A stretch of 64,000 nt of DNA. Origin: Microvirga thermotolerans (GTDB lineage Bacteria > Pseudomonadota > Alphaproteobacteria > Rhizobiales > Beijerinckiaceae). Location of the stretch: NCBI RefSeq assembly GCF_009363855.1, contig NZ_CP045423.1, forward strand, positions 682,001-746,000. Reading direction: 5' to 3'. This document shows positions 37,811 through 44,712 of this stretch, one piece after another; the stretch's first letter is position 1, and each line of letters opens with the position of its first letter. Under the pieces are notes generated by a model that saw only the letters and a list, made by a program, of their open reading frames with translations, made no database searches and was not told the origin of the DNA. The position numbers were made by a program, and so were the translations under genes.

Positions 37811-38305
37811 TTGCGACTGAGCATACTGGCCGTGGGCCGTCTCAAGAGCGGCCCCGAGCGGGAGCTGGTCGAGCGCTACAGGCAGCGGATCGAGGCCATG
37901 GGCCGCAGTCTCGGCCTGACGGGGCTCGAAATGGTCGAGCTTCCGGAAAGCCGGGCGCGCCGGGAGGACGACCGTCGGGCCGAAGAGGCGGCCGCTCTGT
38001 TGGAGAAGGCCGGCGCGGCCTTTCTGGTCGCCTTCGACGAGCGCGGCAGGAGCCCATCGAGCGAAGCCTTCGCCGAGCGGCTGCGGCAATGGCGGGACGA
38101 GGGCTGCCCCGGTATCGCCTGCGTCATCGGCGGTCCGGACGGGCTCGATCCCGTCATCCTCAAGAAGGCCCGGGCGGTGATCTCCTTCGGAGCGCTCACC
38201 ATGCCCCACCAGATCGTGAGGGCGCTCGTGGCCGAGCAACTCTACAGGGCGCTGACAATCATCGCCGGCCACCCTTATCATCGGGCCGGTCACGACGATT
38301 CCTGA
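37811..38305 (+). CDS. rlmH: 23S rRNA pseudouridine-1915 N3-methyltransferase
   Basis: A 164-residue SPOUT methyltransferase acting on pseudouridine 1915 of 23S rRNA in assembled ribosomes. VIGGPDGLD (SAM-binding trefoil knot), ISFGALTMPHQIVRALVAEQLYRA and the ending HPYHR are diagnostic. Start is TTG 37811 (protein LRLSILAVGRLKSGPE). Follows rsfS; envC begins 3 bp after its stop. Confidence 0.94.
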   Translation: MRLSILAVGRLKSGPERELVERYRQRIEAMGRSLGLTGLEMVELPESRARREDDRRAEEAAALLEKAGAAFLVAFDERGRSPSSEAFAERLRQWRDEGCPGIACVIGGPDGLDPVILKKARAVISFGALTMPHQIVRALVAEQLYRALTIIAGHPYHRAGHDDS

Positions 38306-38308
38306 GGA

Positions 38309-39667
38309 ATGGCGCTCATCCGGTTTTCCTTCCCCGGCAAGACCCTGGGCCTTGCCGCATCCATCGCCATCGTTGCCCTGGGGGCGGTGCAGGCCCAGCA
38401 GGTCCCTGCGCCTGCGCCCGCCGCTCCCCCTGCCGTCCCTCCGGAGACCGCGGAGCAGAAGGCCCAGCGGGAAAAGGACCTCAAGGTCCTGGAAGAGGCC
38501 ATGGCCGCCAGCGCGGAGGCCCGCCGGAAGCTGGAAGCCGAGATCGCGGAGATTGCCGCCGACCGGACCAAGCTCAATACGGCCCTGATCGACACGGCAG
38601 GCCGCATCCGTGCGACCGAAGACCGCATCCGCGACGTCGAGCAGCGGCTGCAGACGCTGTCCGCGAGCGAAACGGCCATCCGGCGCTCTCTCGAAGGACG
38701 GCGAGGCGTAATCGTGGAGGTCTTCGCCGCGCTCCAGCGCATGGGACGCCGGCCCCCTCCCGCCGTCCTGGTCCGGCCGGAAGACATGCTGGAGGCGGTC
38801 CGGGCGTCGATTCTGCTCGGCGCGGTGCTGCCGGAGCTGAGGACCGAAGCCGAGGCTCTCGCATCGGACCTTGCGGAACTCGTGCGCCTCAAGAACGCCA
38901 TCGTGACGGATCGCTCGACCCTGGCCGCGGAACTGAAGGCGCTCAATGGCGAGCAGGAACGCCTGACGGCCCTCGTCGAGGCCCGTCAGAAGCGCATCGC
39001 CGAGGTGGAGCGGAGTGTCGGCGCCGAAAGGGAAAAGGCCGCCGCCCTTGCCCGCCAGGCCGGGACTCTCAAGGAATTGATCGACCGGATGGAGAAGGAG
39101 ATCGCCGGCGCGCAGAAGGCCGCCGAGGAGGCCAGGAAGGCGGCCGAGGCGCAGGAGAAGGAGGCCAAGGCGAGATTTGCCCAGGCAGCCTTCCAGGATC
39201 CCGCCCGGCTCGCTCCGAAGATCCCGTTCTCCGAAGCCAAAGGCCTGCTTCCCCGTCCCGTCGGCGGGGAGATCGTCCAGGAGTTCGGGGTCTCCGACGG
39301 CTACGGCGGAACGACGCGCGGCATTTCGATCACCACGCGCCCGCGAGCGTCGATCGTCTCTCCGGCCGACGGCTGGGTTGCCTTTGCCGGCCCCTTCCGG
39401 TCTTATGGGCGACTCTTGATCATCAATGCCGGCGGGGGGTATTATTTGCTTCTGGCCGGGATGGACCAAATCAACGTCGATGTCGGGCAGTTCGTGCTCG
39501 CTGGCGAACCGGTTGCCACGATGGGAGAGACCTCTCTTCTCTCTCTGGCCGGCGGTGCCATGGAAAAGAACAATCCGATTCTCTATGTAGAGTTCCGGAA
39601 AGACGGCAGTTCGATCGATCCCGCTCCCTGGTGGGCGAAATCGCAAGGCGAGAAGGTTCGCGGATAA
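38309..39667 (+). CDS. Murein hydrolase activator EnvC-like, M23/LytM domain
   Basis: A 452-residue periplasmic protein. A signal peptide (about 1-32, ending VQAQ) and a Pro/Ala spacer are followed by long coiled coils (about 45-300, full of E/K/A heptads). A C-terminal LytM domain spans about 335-440. In the LytM domain the usual zinc ligands are missing: the GxxHxGxD site reads TTRGISI and no HxH is seen. It therefore should activate amidases, as EnvC does, rather than cut peptidoglycan itself. Its TAA overlaps the ctpA ATG by one base. Confidence 0.88.
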   Translation: MALIRFSFPGKTLGLAASIAIVALGAVQAQQVPAPAPAAPPAVPPETAEQKAQREKDLKVLEEAMAASAEARRKLEAEIAEIAADRTKLNTALIDTAGRIRATEDRIRDVEQRLQTLSASETAIRRSLEGRRGVIVEVFAALQRMGRRPPPAVLVRPEDMLEAVRASILLGAVLPELRTEAEALASDLAELVRLKNAIVTDRSTLAAELKALNGEQERLTALVEARQKRIAEVERSVGAEREKAAALARQAGTLKELIDRMEKEIAGAQKAAEEARKAAEAQEKEAKARFAQAAFQDPARLAPKIPFSEAKGLLPRPVGGEIVQEFGVSDGYGGTTRGISITTRPRASIVSPADGWVAFAGPFRSYGRLLIINAGGGYYLLLAGMDQINVDVGQFVLAGEPVATMGETSLLSLAGGAMEKNNPILYVEFRKDGSSIDPAPWWAKSQGEKVRG

Positions 39668-40983
39668 TGCGCAAAGTGTCCCTGTTAATTCTTGGTGCGG
39701 TCATCGGCGCCGGCAGCATGTCGGTGGTGTCGCAGACCAGCCTGCTGTCCTCGACGAGCGCGATCGCTGCCTCCGCGGATACCTACCGGCAGCTGAGTCT
39801 CTTCGGTGACGTTTTCGAGAAGATCCGGACGGATTACGTCGAGAAGCCCGACGAGTCGAAGCTGGTCGAGGCCGCCATCAACGGCATGCTGACCTCCCTC
39901 GATCCCCATTCCAGCTACATGGATGCCAAGAGCTTCCGCGACATGCAGGTGCAGACCCGCGGCGAGTTCGGCGGGCTCGGCATCGAGGTGACGATGGAGG
40001 ACGGCCTCGTGAAGGTCGTGGCGCCCATCGACGACACTCCCGCCTCCCGCGCCGGCATTCTGGCCAACGACATCATCACCCAGATCAACGGGGAGCCGGT
40101 TCAGGGGCTCAACCTGAACCAGGCCGTGGACAAGATGCGCGGCCCGATCAACTCCTCCGTGACGCTCAAGATCCTGCGCAAGGAATCGAAGGAGCCGATC
40201 GAGGTGAAGCTCACCCGCGAGACCATCAAGGTCCGCCCGGTGCGCGCGCGGGCCGAAGGCGACATCGGCGTTCTGCGCATCACCCAGTTCAACGAGCAGA
40301 CCTATGAGGGCCTGCGCACGGGCATCGAGAAGCTGACGAGCGAGATCGGGGCCGACAAGCTGGCCGGCTTCGTCATCGACCTTCGCAACAACCCGGGCGG
40401 TCTCCTGGATCAGGCGATCATGGTGTCCGACGCTTTCCTGGACCGGGGCGAGATCGTCTCGACCCGCAGCCGCAATCCCGAGGATACCCAGCGCTTCACC
40501 GCGAAGCCGGGGGACCTCACCAAGGGCAAGCCGCTGGTGGTGCTCGTGAACGGCGGCTCCGCCTCCGCCTCGGAGATCGTCGCCGGCGCGCTGCAGGACC
40601 ACAAGCGCGCGACCGTGATCGGCACCCGCTCCTTCGGCAAGGGCTCGGTCCAGACGATCATCCCGCTCGGCGGCAACGGGGCCGTGCGCCTGACCACCGC
40701 CCGCTACTACACGCCGTCGGGACGCTCGATCCAGGCCAAAGGCATCGATCCGGACAAGGAGGTGCTGCAGGACGTTCCGGACGAGCTGAAGGGCAAGGAC
40801 GAGACCAAGGGCGAGGCCGGTCTGCGCGGGCACCTGCAGAACGGCAGCGACAAGGAAGAGCGCGGCGGTTCCTCGGCCTATATCCCGCCGGATCCGGCGA
40901 AGGACAAGCAGCTCCTCGCCGCCTACGACTTCCTGCACGGCGTGCGCAAGGGCGCCGCGAACGCGACCAACGTCCCGAACTGA
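39667..40983 (+). CDS. ctpA: Carboxy-terminal processing protease (S41)
   Basis: A 438-residue periplasmic serine protease with an N-terminal signal anchor (about 1-35). A PDZ domain (about 95-180, [30 protein letters not shown]) lies inside the S41 fold. The catalytic pair is Ser300 in NGGSASASE and Lys325 in SFGKGSVQT. It trims or degrades envelope proteins; CtpA homologues control peptidoglycan hydrolases, which fits its coupling to the EnvC-like gene. ATG 39667 shares an A with the upstream stop. Terminator follows at 41012-41040. Confidence 0.93.
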
Positions 40984-41011
40984 TCGCGGAAGCATCTCTC
41001 GCCGTTCAACG

Positions 41012-41040
41012 GGCCCGGCGGCAGAACCGCCGGGCCTTTT
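41012..41040 (+). terminator. Terminator after ctpA
   Basis: GGCCCGGCGG-cagaa-CCGCCGGGCC, a perfect 10-bp stem followed by TTTT (41037-41040). Confidence 0.88.
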
Positions 41041-41197
41041 CATGTTGCGGGAAGAAGGCGGTGTGGAAAGGCTTGTGCAACACGGAGCGTCGCGGCACTC
41101 TTGGCGCCTGCGTCGGAACCGAAGGCATCGATCGTGCGATCATAATGATCCGCCGGCTGCCTCGAGCCGGACAAGCACGAACGGAGGATCGGGTCGG

Positions 41198-41740
41198 ATG
41201 AGAAGCGCCAAGGGATTGCAGGCCAGAACCGATCTTCCCTATCGCGCCTGCGTCGGCGTCATGCTTCTCAACCGCGACGGCCGCGTGTTCATCGGACGGA
41301 GGCGATCCGACGGGGGAGGAGATCAGGTCGCCGAAGGTTACGCATGGCAGATGCCGCAGGGCGGGATCGATCCCGGCGAGGAGCCCTATCAAGCGGCGCT
41401 GCGGGAGCTCTACGAGGAGACGAGCGTGCGCTCCGTGAAGCTCCTGGCGGAGGCGCCCGAATGGTATTCCTATGACCTCCCCTCCCTCGTGGCCGGGCGG
41501 GCCTGGCGCGGGCGTTATCGCGGTCAGACGCAGAAGTGGTTCGCCTTCCGCTTCGAGGGCGAGGAGAGCGAGATCGACATCCATCGCCCCGGCGGAGGGC
41601 GTCACCGGCCCGAATTCGACGAATGGCGCTGGGAAGACATGAGGCGCCTGCCCGAGCTGATCATCCCCTTCAAGCGGCCCGTCTACGAAAACGTGGTCAG
41701 CGTGTTCGGCCATCTCCAGAAAGGCGAGACGCGGGGCTGA
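41198..41740 (+). CDS. rppH: RNA pyrophosphohydrolase
   Basis: A 180-residue Nudix enzyme removing pyrophosphate from mRNA 5' ends to trigger decay. The Nudix box runs 55-77 ([20 protein letters not shown]). The N-terminal [23 protein letters not shown] and the late [25 protein letters not shown] match RppH/IalA of alphaproteobacteria. Start ATG 41198 lies behind GGAGGAT (slightly distant); the frame upstream to 41042 overlaps the ctpA terminator and is not coding. Confidence 0.93.
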
Positions 41741-41888: not shown

Positions 41889-43211
41889 ATGATCCGGCTT
41901 GCCATCATCCTCATGGGTTTCGAAACCATGCGGCGTCAATGGCGGCTGCTGGCTGTCCTCGCGGGAGCCTGGCTCGCACTGGGCCTGGCGATCATGCTGG
42001 ATGCCGCCGACGGCGTCACGGTCGTCGTCACCGAGACCTTCGGCTACCTCCTGGTTGCGGAAGGCCTGACGGCCCTTGTCGTCACGGCAGGGCTCGGGCG
42101 CAGGAGAGGGCGTTTCTTTCTTGCGCGTGCGCTGGTGATGCTGACGCTCGGGCTCCTGATCGTCGATCTGCCCTGGCGCAACGACATCGCCAACAGCCTG
42201 CTCTTCGGCATCGCCTTTCTCCTCGACGGGGCCATCCGGCTGATCGCGGCCTCCTTCGTTCGCTATCCGCGGTGGAGAACGGTCGCGGCGGTGGCGCTGG
42301 TCGAAATCGGCCTGGCGGTGCTCGCCTTCACCAGCTGGCCCATTTCCTACACGAAGACGGTGCCCTTCTGCATCGGCGTCGCTCTCTTTCTTTCAGGATT
42401 CACTTTCTTCCGGCTGGCGCTTGGGCTGCGCGGCCTGCCGCCACGGCCGGGCTCCTGGCCCCTGCTGGCTCGGTCGCGGTGGCTGCCGCCTCCGCACGAT
42501 CCCTCGGCCTTCGCCGGGCAGGAGGCGCCGGAATTCCTTTTCGTCCGCGTCTGGACGCCGGTCGGTGCCGCCGGCGAGGTCCGCCCCCGGCCCATGTTCG
42601 ACCGCTATATCGCGGCAGTCGACCGTAACGGCGTGGTCTCGACCGGCCATGCCGCCCTCGAATGCGGGCCGGACGTCTACATCAGCCATTATCCGGCTGT
42701 GGAGATCGATCGGAACCTCGGGGAATTCTCGCGCGTGGTCCGCGCCGACGCCGCCAACGATGTGCCGGGGCGTTTCCAGCCCTCCTACGAGCACGAGGCC
42801 GCGAACTGGTGCGAGGCGGATGCCGTGGTGAAGTTCCGGCGTTTCAACGCCGCCAAGCTGCGCGCGGTCTGGGCCGCTTACCGGATGGACAACACCTACA
42901 ACCTGACGAACCGCAACTGCTCCGTGGCCGTGGCCGTCGCCCTGGAAGCCGCCTTGGAAGGGGTCCTCGGCACGGACAAGGTCTGGCGGCGGTTCCTGCA
43001 GCTCCTGGTCAATCCCGACCTCTGGCTCGCCGCGGTGCTGCGGGAGCGTGCGGAGGCCATGACGTGGACGCCCGGGCTCGTGCTCGATTACGCGCGCGCC
43101 CTTCGGCGGGTGGTGCACCCGGCAGGAGTGCACTGGCCGATGCGCGTGCAGAACATGCTCCGCGAGCACCGTCGCGTCCGCGCGGAGGAGAAGGCGGCCC
43201 TGGCCGCCTGA
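41889..43211 (+). CDS. HdeD-like membrane domain fused to papain-like domain
   Basis: A 440-residue protein. Residues 1-182 hold six hydrophobic helices in the HdeD/DUF308 pattern (MRRQWRLLAVLAGAWLALGLAIM ... FGYLLVAEGLTALVV ... LLDGAIRLIAASF). Residues ~215-400 form a soluble domain with GHAAL (His254) and, later, NLTNRNCSVAVAVALE (Cys344). That order of His before Cys suggests a circularly permuted papain-like (NlpC/P60, LRAT or PPPDE type) fold. HdeD proteins are linked to acid stress; the fused domain would place a thiol hydrolase or acyltransferase at the membrane. No operon partners. Confidence 0.75.
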   Translation: MIRLAIILMGFETMRRQWRLLAVLAGAWLALGLAIMLDAADGVTVVVTETFGYLLVAEGLTALVVTAGLGRRRGRFFLARALVMLTLGLLIVDLPWRNDIANSLLFGIAFLLDGAIRLIAASFVRYPRWRTVAAVALVEIGLAVLAFTSWPISYTKTVPFCIGVALFLSGFTFFRLALGLRGLPPRPGSWPLLARSRWLPPPHDPSAFAGQEAPEFLFVRVWTPVGAAGEVRPRPMFDRYIAAVDRNGVVSTGHAALECGPDVYISHYPAVEIDRNLGEFSRVVRADAANDVPGRFQPSYEHEAANWCEADAVVKFRRFNAAKLRAVWAAYRMDNTYNLTNRNCSVAVAVALEAALEGVLGTDKVWRRFLQLLVNPDLWLAAVLRERAEAMTWTPGLVLDYARALRRVVHPAGVHWPMRVQNMLREHRRVRAEEKAALAA

Positions 43212-43734
43212 AGTGCTGCGGATGAACCTCGCATTCGCCTCCGGGTCCGGGGCGGAGCCGGGTTCCGTGCAGCCCGGGAATCGAAGCAGGGATGCTGTGA
43301 CGGCGGCCGTGCGCAAGGCGCCGCGGGTCGATCCCCGCGAGGCCAGCCGGACCCAGGCCCGCAGGGCGTCTTTCGTCGATGTCGGGCCGGACGCGATGCC
43401 CCTGCTTCCGCCATGGTTCGCGCCGCCGCTGCCCGGAACGGTCGAGACAAAGCCGCACGCGTGTCGCGTCCGGGCGATGGAATGGATGAACCCGCGCCTC
43501 GGCAGCTCTCGCACGAAGGCTCGCTGCGCTTGGTCGAGACGACCCCTCGGATCGCCCGTTCTTCGACGTAATACCGAATTGCTACCGCCGCATCCTCCGG
43601 AAACATGGCCTGAGAGGGCTTTTGAAGGGAGTCTCTTGCCCGGCAGGCCGGCGGCCATTCGCTTCGCCGCAGGCGACGGCCTGCCGTCGGCAAGACGACC
43701 GTGATCGTGGATCGAATGGGCGGAGGGGAGCGGC
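43212..43734. other. Gene-free region
   Basis: About 520 bp. Open frames exist on both strands but with Arg/Pro/Ser-rich shadow-like translations and no ribosome sites. I see no RNA gene or repeat. It should include the promoter of the beta-helix gene. Confidence 0.4.
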
Positions 43735-44712
43735 ATGCTGAGGTGGACGGCGGCATGGCTCCTGCAATCCGTGTGTCGGTCCGAACCGGCCATTGTCACC
43801 ATCGTCCTCATGCTCGCTTCGACCGTCCCGTGTGGCGGCTCGGTTCCCTCCTCCGCTGCCATGGCGGGAGTGTCCGGCTTGCGGTTTGCTGCGCAGCCGG
43901 ATCGATCTTCTGCGGAGGAAAATGCAGGCACCGTTGCCGGTGCGTCCGGGGACACGCTGCGCAGCAGCCGGCCCTTTCCGAATTCGACGAACACGGGGGT
44001 TCCGTCTGGTGTGACGCTGACGCCGTCGGGCGGTCTGACGGTCACGAAGGCCGGAGCGGTGATTGAGGGCCTGAACATCACCGGTCCGGTGATCATCGAG
44101 GCGCCGAACGTGACGCTGAAGAACTGCAAGATCACGTTTACCGGCTACTGGGGCGTGTACATCAAGCCGGGCGTCACCGGCACGATCGTGCAGGACAACG
44201 AGATCAACGGCACCGGCACCAACAACGAGGGCTCGCACGGCATCCTCGGCACCGGCACCTTCCTGCGCAACAACATCTACAATGTCGAGAACGGGATCAC
44301 CCTCAACGGCGGCGACACCACGATCCGCGACAACTACATCCACGACCTCAAGGCGTCGGGGGCGCCGCATTACGACGGCATCGAGGTCGACGGCGGCATT
44401 TCGAACGTGACCATCGAGCACAACACGGTGCTCAACGACCACACCCAGACCTCGGCGGTGATGATCGACAACTACTTCGGGCCGGTCTCCAACGTGAAGG
44501 TCGACAACAACTACCTGGTCGGCGGCGGCTACACGGTCTATGTCGACGGCCAGTTCAACGGCGGCTCCATCTCGGGCGTGTCGGTGACCAACAACTACCT
44601 CGAGAAGGGCTATTACGGCTATTACCTGGTCCGCAACAACGATGCCACCGTCAGCGGGAATGCCCAGGCGCCGGCACGCCGCGCACCGGCCGTCGAGAAA
44701 AGCCTCCGTTGA
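43735..44712 (+). CDS. Secreted right-handed parallel beta-helix protein
   Basis: A 325-residue protein. A hydrophobic N-terminus (about 17-45) is probably a signal peptide. From ~85 to ~305 there are repeated beta-helix coils of the pectate-lyase/NosD kind (LTVTKAGAVIEGLNITGPVIIEAPNVTLKNCKI, NGITLNGGDTTIRDNYIHDL, NVTIEHNTVLN, NVKVDNNYLV). These are polysaccharide-binding or -modifying folds; no catalytic residues can be assigned. The last 16 residues (QAPARRAPAVEKSLR) break the pattern abruptly, as if the gene were truncated or joined to foreign sequence. Base composition also changes at ~43980. Confidence 0.8.
   Translation: MLRWTAAWLLQSVCRSEPAIVTIVLMLASTVPCGGSVPSSAAMAGVSGLRFAAQPDRSSAEENAGTVAGASGDTLRSSRPFPNSTNTGVPSGVTLTPSGGLTVTKAGAVIEGLNITGPVIIEAPNVTLKNCKITFTGYWGVYIKPGVTGTIVQDNEINGTGTNNEGSHGILGTGTFLRNNIYNVENGITLNGGDTTIRDNYIHDLKASGAPHYDGIEVDGGISNVTIEHNTVLNDHTQTSAVMIDNYFGPVSNVKVDNNYLVGGGYTVYVDGQFNGGSISGVSVTNNYLEKGYYGYYLVRNNDATVSGNAQAPARRAPAVEKSLR

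What the first reader, a model, noticed from the sequence alone, without database searches (positions are those of the whole stretch)
41889..43211. HdeD-like six-helix domain fused to a permuted papain-like domain
A membrane domain of the acid-stress HdeD type is joined to a domain with GHAAL (His254) before NCS (Cys344), the order of circularly permuted NlpC/P60, LRAT or PPPDE folds. The fusion would put a cysteine hydrolase or acyltransferase at the inner membrane and suggests that HdeD-type domains may sense or present lipids or peptides.
Basis: partly seen in the sequence, partly recalled or inferred. Interest (0 to 1): 0.5.

Follow-up and report, generated by a model that had tools for sequence, protein, structure and literature searches.

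The report
Membrane-anchored permuted papain-like enzyme family
This gene joins an HdeD-type six-helix membrane anchor to a cysteine enzyme domain of a kind that often acts on lipids, and it belongs to a little-noticed protein family of proteobacteria that often sits beside its own partner genes.

Summary
ORF 41889-43211 (+) encodes 440 aa: an HdeD/DUF308-type six-helix domain (profile-profile 98.9%, E 3e-17) fused to a ~200-aa domain with His254 before Cys344, both invariant in 64 of 64 aligned sequences, window included. A 64-row AlphaFold model (pLDDT 84.8, pTM 0.83) starts a strand at His254 and a helix at Cys344, as in permuted papain-like folds. The only listed structural match confined to this half is the deSUMOylase 2wp7 (Z 5.5, 115 aa). 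Weak sequence hits point to Lnb_N (lipoprotein N-acyltransferase Lnb), RTE1 and a MARTX chain; the window's own domain alone is below every cut-off. Loop charges predict a cytosolic domain. Relatives form modules: a close MFS transporter (6 of 8 genomes with the gene, 0 of 377 without, at a cut set after seeing scores) and an Lnb_N-type gene (5 of 12 against 0 of 67). The window's copy has neither. Best reading: a membrane-tethered, cytosol-facing cysteine acyltransferase or lipid hydrolase. Architecture is well supported; fold moderately; activity, substrate and Cys-His distance are untested.

The parts
41889..43211 (+). whole gene, 440 aa, ATG start conserved with the M. brassicacearum copy
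41889..42446 (+). HdeD/DUF308-type six-helix membrane domain, residues 1-186
42447..42533 (+). linker, residues 187-215, low model confidence over most of it
42534..43124 (+). C-terminal permuted papain-like domain, residues 216-412
42648..42650 (+). His254 codon, invariant 64 of 64, first residue of a predicted strand
42918..42920 (+). Cys344 codon, invariant 64 of 64, first residue of a predicted helix
43065..43091 (+). end motif W393-T-P-G ... D400-Y401; these six positions are invariant 64 of 64

Best explanation
The protein is an inner-membrane enzyme. Six HdeD-type helices (N-in, C-in) hold a permuted papain-like domain against the cytoplasmic leaflet. Cys344, activated by His254, most likely forms an acyl-thioester with a fatty-acyl donor (phospholipid or acyl-CoA) and passes the acyl group to an acceptor (lipid, protein amine or water), as LRAT/PLAAT, Lnb and RID/IcsB enzymes are thought to do. 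In many relatives it is linked to an MFS transporter or to a second, Lnb_N-type gene; in the window genome it stands alone. Shown by computation: architecture, conservation, charge-based topology, partner linkage. Inferred: catalysis, acyl chemistry, substrate.
For: His254 and Cys344 invariant in 64 of 64. Model pLDDT 84.8, pTM 0.83, helix 344-356 starting at Cys and strand 254-259 starting at His. 2wp7 (DUF862 deSUMOylase) over residues 211-392, Z 5.5, 3.7 A, 115 aa. Weak hits: Lnb_N in 36 of 64 C-domains at E <= 0.1, best 1.2e-4, RTE1 in 16 of 64, best 0.008; top PDB profile hit is 5xn7, putative RTX-toxin, E 0.021. One relative reaches the Lnb_N cut-off (G752: 21.5 bits for the stretch, 22.2 with its frame). 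Inner stretches richer in Lys+Arg than outer loops in 64 of 64 by count and 60 of 60 by density. Partner linkage: close MFS 6 of 8 against 0 of 377; Lnb_N 5 of 12 against 0 of 67 (p values). Lipid-related neighbours in single cases: patatin-like phospholipase plus DUF4105, DedA. Permuted NlpC/P60 enzymes bind or act on lipids (PMC3142127, PMC12994826, passages).
Against: No activity data. The window's C-domain has no Pfam hit at E <= 0.1; its Lnb_N match is 12.2 bits, E 0.13. hhalign of the C-domain family against the neighbouring Lnb_N proteins is not significant (0.6%, 30 columns). Foldseek gives no PDB hit at E <= 0.001, and Z 5.5 is in the range the tool calls common. The next PDB profile hit after 5xn7 is a foldase at E 0.084, by its name unrelated. 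The third catalytic residue is not identified. Most genomes with the fusion lack the partners: 24 of 38 lack the MFS at E <= 1e-60 and 28 of 38 lack a separate Lnb_N gene. The window genome lacks both.
Confidence: 0.5

Rival explanations
1. Membrane-tethered cysteine peptidase, amidase or deconjugase: the domain cuts an amide bond in a cytosolic or membrane protein (DeSI-1-like) and the HdeD helices only place it.
For: The only listed structural match confined to the C-domain is the deSUMOylase 2wp7. Two plasmid records annotate relatives as protease.
Against: In part of the family an Lnb_N-type gene, a class with a known lipoprotein acyltransferase, is linked. Weak sequence hits include acyltransferase families. 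The protease label has no stated basis.
Confidence: 0.25
2. Lipoprotein N-acyltransferase of the Lnb type, i.e. the domain works in the periplasm on lipoproteins.
For: Lnb_N is the most frequent Pfam hit of the C-domain family; Lnb_N genes are neighbours in some relatives.
Against: Loop charges predict a cytoplasmic domain. The window protein is below the Pfam cut-off. Six of seven neighbouring Lnb_N proteins tested also lack a hydrophobic N-terminus.
Confidence: 0.07
3. The C-domain is a catalytically dead sensor or scaffold, and the protein acts in acid or envelope stress as HdeD is said to do.
For: The three E. coli plasmid copies are annotated HdeD family acid-resistance protein. HdeD is linked to acid stress (recalled; listing).
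Against: His and Cys are invariant in 64 of 64, which dead domains seldom keep (general knowledge).
Confidence: 0.13

Closest known systems
HdeD / DUF308 membrane proteins
   Same: Six helices, same profile over 174 columns
   Different: The 12 HdeD-type proteins compared end soon after the helices; this one adds an enzyme domain and is below the curated HdeD cut-off
Lnb_N (DUF4105), domain of the lipoprotein N-acyltransferase Lnb
   Same: Weak profile hits in 36 of 64 at E <= 0.1; gene neighbour in some relatives
   Different: Pfam names Lnb_N periplasmic; here the domain is predicted cytosolic and the window copy misses the cut-off
RID of MARTX toxins and IcsB-like lysine fatty acyltransferases (PMC13059803, abstract and passages)
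   Same: Top PDB profile hit, E 0.021 (that 5xn7 is RID is recalled); inverted papain-like fold by that paper
   Different: Those are effectors acting in host cells, IcsB with an H-D-C triad; this is a bacterial membrane protein, and no injection link was looked for
PPPDE / DUF862 deSUMOylase (2wp7)
   Same: 115 aa aligned, 3.7 A, Z 5.5; permuted His-Cys order (PMC3142127 passages treat PPPDE1 with the permuted enzymes)
   Different: 10% identity; a 158-residue chain without the membrane half
LRAT, PLAAT and YiiX permuted NlpC/P60 enzymes (PMC3142127, passages)
   Same: Permuted order, cysteine chemistry, lipid link
   Different: No sequence hit to these obtained here

Membership tests
HdeD / DUF308 superfamily | six-helix HdeD profile | tested here: met
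   hhalign 98.9%, E 3e-17; comparison set 12 of 12 HdeD; of 64 members, NCBIfam HdeD hits 28 and DUF308 hits 25 at E <= 0.01
HdeD equivalog (NCBIfam NF007577) | 189-bit curated cut-off | tested here: not met
   16.6 bits
[quoted passage not shown]
   64 of 64
[quoted passage not shown]
   DSSP of the model: helix 344-356, strand 254-259
[quoted passage not shown]
   2wp7 Z 5.5; no Foldseek hit at E <= 0.001
[quoted passage not shown]
   coordinates not available to scripts (one search lists /data)
Lnb_N (PF13387) | 22.2-bit gathering score | tested here: not met
   window domain 12.2 bits; one relative reaches 22.2 with its frame (G752)
Lnb_N (PF13387) | periplasmic placement | tested here: not met
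   prediction from loop charge only: N-in/C-in
RID/IcsB k-FAT | sequence relation | tested here: inconclusive
   E 0.021 with the 64-row profile, 0.15 with the 8-row profile
RID/IcsB k-FAT | lysine fatty-acyltransferase activity | not testable with these tools
   needs an assay
PPPDE (PF05903) | Pfam profile match | tested here: inconclusive
   not among hits for the window protein at E <= 10 or the 64 C-domains at E <= 0.1; HMMER's filters drop weak hits

The most novel reading that the evidence does not exclude
A resident bacterial fatty-acyltransferase: a membrane-embedded, cytosol-facing cousin of the RID/IcsB effector acyltransferases and of Lnb, which acylates the cell's own lipids or proteins, with a linked MFS protein moving the lipid product or substrate. 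It would give injected effectors such as RID and IcsB a native bacterial relative.
Probability: 0.15. Interest if true: 0.75.

Novelty: new variant of a known kind. Interest (0 to 1): 0.52.

Why it matters
It defines a coherent, untested protein family hidden under labels such as HdeD family acid-resistance protein, protease, MFS transporter and hypothetical protein. It gives HdeD-type domains a testable biochemical context (anchors for cysteine acyl chemistry) and links a permuted papain-like domain to an MFS transporter. If the acyl chemistry holds, it offers a native bacterial counterpart to effector acyltransferases.

Tried and rejected
First model from 8 sequences was poor (pLDDT 63.9) and not used. 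Foldseek on PDB and on viral models gave no hit at E <= 0.001; the VIA-align rows were dominated by the membrane helices, so the absence of other papain-like rows says nothing. PHROGs gave no hit at E <= 1 for three of four C-domains and only E > 0.2 for the fourth. Viral contigs: 10 pattern matches, none a relative. Phage records: no match to the window's C-domain at E <= 0.01. hhalign of the C-domain family against neighbouring Lnb_N: not significant. PDB search with the Lnb_N neighbours found no papain-like name among 6 hits, E 0.087 or worse. C308 as part of the site: rejected, changed in 4 of 64; H267 as a general third residue: rejected, His in 18 of 64. Decayed partner genes in the window: best tblastn E 4.5 (MFS) and 1.4 (Lnb_N). 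The antisense ORF 42393-44135 was taken as chance and not tested. Papers: HdeD with papain-like, none; DUF4105, two; HdeD with acyltransferase and cysteine, six, listing only; MASE1/HdeD/operon/lipid, 56 holding three of the terms, ten listed; HdeD and acid resistance, 41, twelve listed; DUF308, 24, fifteen listed, and the three that I opened matched DUF3089 or DUF3085 instead. None of the listings names this fusion; most texts were not opened and the library is open-access only.

Full report
What is there. The ORF 41889-43211 (+) encodes a 440-aa protein, present once in the 3.82-Mb genome. Residues 1-186 form six predicted membrane helices; residues 216-412 form an alpha/beta domain; a last helix spans 416-439. 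The closest named relative is in Microvirga brassicacearum (77% in the best segment). Between the two copies dN/dS is about 0.12 (0.15 for residues 1-190, 0.10 for 216-440), but silent sites are near saturation and amino-acid identity is slightly lower in the C-terminal part (76.4% against 80.5%), so no difference between the halves is claimed.

Family. Homologues were sought in samples of whole genomes: 17 of 149 in the family (6 with both halves, 11 matching only the HdeD half), 8 of 385 in the class, 16 of 398 in the phylum, 40 of 120 in family f216 and 12 of 79 in family f199. The last two families were chosen because they had hits, so they are not estimates for the phylum, and the samples overlap. 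None of the five other same-genus genomes listed has it. From 79 loci came 67 ORFs with the C-domain, 64 of them distinct, the window included. Of these 64, one (L068) lacks about 90 residues of the membrane half in its open frame. The gene also has matches on 44 plasmid records, 39 with at least 80% cover; close copies of the E. coli one are in 3 of 5,426 complete E. coli genomes, all on plasmids. In a quick tree (SH-aLRT only) four f199 rows (L038, L039, L071, L072) lie among f216 rows while other f199 rows lie elsewhere, which suggests transfer between families.

Membrane half. Alone, the window protein scores below the cut-offs for DUF308 and HdeD. Of 64 members, 28 hit NCBIfam HdeD (best 2.5e-6) and 25 hit DUF308 (best 3.1e-6) at E <= 0.01. 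Profile against profile, 23 N-domains match 12 HdeD-type proteins with 98.9% probability, E 3e-17, over 174 columns; 12 of 12 are HdeD by NCBIfam. Lys+Arg means are 0.17-0.23 in the three outer loops and 1.27-5.20 in the four inner stretches; the stretch after helix six also holds 4.0 acidic residues on average. The inner set is longer, so I recounted by density: inner above outer in 60 of 60 rows (four short rows left out), also with the two inner loops alone and for net charge; mean density 0.175 against 0.022. The predicted topology is N-in, C-in, so the C-domain faces the cytoplasm. This rests on charge and the modelled helices only.

Catalytic half. Twenty-three positions are invariant in the 64 sequences, all of them from residue 222 on, among them G253-H254, Y264, S266, P269, Y337, R342-N343-C344, W393-T-P-G and D400-Y401. 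With the 64-row alignment AlphaFold2 reached pLDDT 84.8 and pTM 0.83; with 8 rows it reached 63.9 and 0.56. In the better model His254 starts strand 254-259 and Cys344 starts helix 344-356. [quoted passage not shown] VIA-align lists 2wp7, a DUF862 deSUMOylase, over residues 211-392, Z 5.5, 3.7 A, 115 residues; it is the only one of 50 listed entries confined to this half. That Z is modest, and Foldseek alone found nothing significant. Coordinates could not be read, so the Cys-His distance was not measured.

Sequence relatives. Three weak signals fall in papain-like families: Lnb_N in 36 of 64 C-domains at E <= 0.1 (best 1.2e-4) and RTE1 in 16 of 64 (best 0.008), and the PDB chain 5xn7 (E 0.021 with 64 rows, 0.15 with 8; the next hit of the 64-row search, a foldase, has 0.084). 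That 5xn7 is a RID domain is recalled; the output says putative RTX-toxin. PMC12994826 (passages) places DUF4105, now Lnb_N, in the permuted NlpC/P60 group; PMC10318531 (passages) counts RTE1 as papain-like; PMC13059803 (passages) calls the RID/IcsB fold inverted papain-like. In genome searches the Lnb_N model picks up this C-domain itself twice (G752, 21.5 bits, 22.2 with its frame; G018, 19.8 bits). Against this, the window's own domain gives 12.2 bits, members are related so their hits are not independent, and a direct profile comparison with neighbouring Lnb_N proteins was not significant. I place the domain in the permuted papain-like superfamily on the sum of these, not in Lnb_N.

Partners. 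A close MFS transporter lies within 3 kb in 16, 13 of them in the same direction; several overlap the fusion gene by four bases (L083, L089, L102, L104, L121). In the class sample of 385, 18 genomes have this MFS at E <= 1e-60. Six of them are 59-63% identical (E <= 1e-128), and all six are among the 8 with the fusion gene; the other 12 are at most 41% identical (E 7e-81 or worse) and lack the fusion. I set the cut between these after seeing the gap, and one search scored at most five candidates a genome. Fisher p at that cut is 6e-12 by genome and 6e-8 by genus; kinship is only roughly allowed for. Of 38 genomes with the fusion, 14 have the MFS at E <= 1e-60, 12 of them within 2 kb of the fusion gene; one other is about 7.5 kb away, one on another contig. 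An Lnb_N-type gene lies downstream in 8 of 47 loci, six in the same direction; 7 of 7 scanned are Lnb_N. A Cedecea plasmid outside that set has one annotated DUF4105. In the 79-genome sample Lnb_N is in 5, all among the 12 with the fusion gene, p 4e-5. Of 38 genomes with the fusion, 10 have a separate Lnb_N gene; in 7 its domain lies within 1 kb of the C-domain match, in 3 elsewhere. Six of the seven proteins in A5 lack a hydrophobic N-terminus, so they too may be cytosolic. A MASE1-type gene lies upstream in 9 of 47 loci (Pfam name and records). Single cases show a patatin-like phospholipase and DedA. The window genome has no Lnb_N and no MFS of this kind at E <= 1e-60, and the window holds no remnant of either.

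How it most likely works. Permuted NlpC/P60 enzymes have hydrophobic substrate pockets, and a YiiX structure held a putative fatty acid near its Cys (PMC3142127, passages). Tox-Act1, sister clade of DUF4105, cleaves phospholipids and loses toxicity without its His or Cys, and DUF4105 was found to be the Bacteroides lipoprotein N-acyltransferase Lnb (PMC12994826, passages; the Lnb paper itself is not held). IcsB-like enzymes transfer fatty acids to lysines (PMC13059803, abstract and passages). I infer that Cys344 takes an acyl group at the cytoplasmic face of the inner membrane and hands it to a lipid, a protein or water. The donor, the acceptor and the role of the MFS are unknown.

Known or new. 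The two halves are known kinds. The three E. coli copies are named HdeD family acid-resistance protein; other records say hypothetical protein, protease, MFS transporter or DUF308 domain-containing protein. My searches of the open-access library listed no paper that names this fusion (mostly listings, few texts opened). I rate it a new variant of a known kind: the fusion, the predicted cytosolic placement and the partner genes are new as far as these searches go; the catalytic fold is not.

Noticed in passing
L038, L039, L071, L072 in the tree: Four rows of family f199 lie among rows of family f216, a sign of transfer; genome G1014 holds two copies (L072, L079) in different parts of the tree.
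   Followed up: partly
L082, L097, L099, L112-L114, L117-L119, L127, L128: A MASE1-type gene lies directly upstream in the same direction, sometimes with SMR transporter or MipA/OmpV genes nearby; looks like a mobile envelope module.
   Followed up: partly
L081:721-6144: Ochrobactrum plasmid locus with MFS, the fusion gene, a DUF4105 gene with hydrophobic segments and a patatin-like phospholipase side by side.
   Followed up: no
L080, L082, L127: Relatives of the fusion gene are named MFS transporter in plasmid records, apparently a misannotation.
   Followed up: no
model residues 1-186: Among the 50 Foldseek rows shown the highest probability goes to the Helicobacter urea channel (6nsj, 0.90, E 0.42); too weak to use.
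   Followed up: no
window 37811-41740: Upstream genes that look by eye like an RlmH-like protein, an M23-like peptidase, a CtpA-like protease and a Nudix protein; the peptidase and CtpA-like genes also lie upstream of the fusion gene in M. brassicacearum.
   Followed up: no
window 43735-44712: The next ORF downstream reads by eye like a secreted parallel beta-helix protein; in M. brassicacearum the MFS gene follows the fusion gene instead.
   Followed up: no
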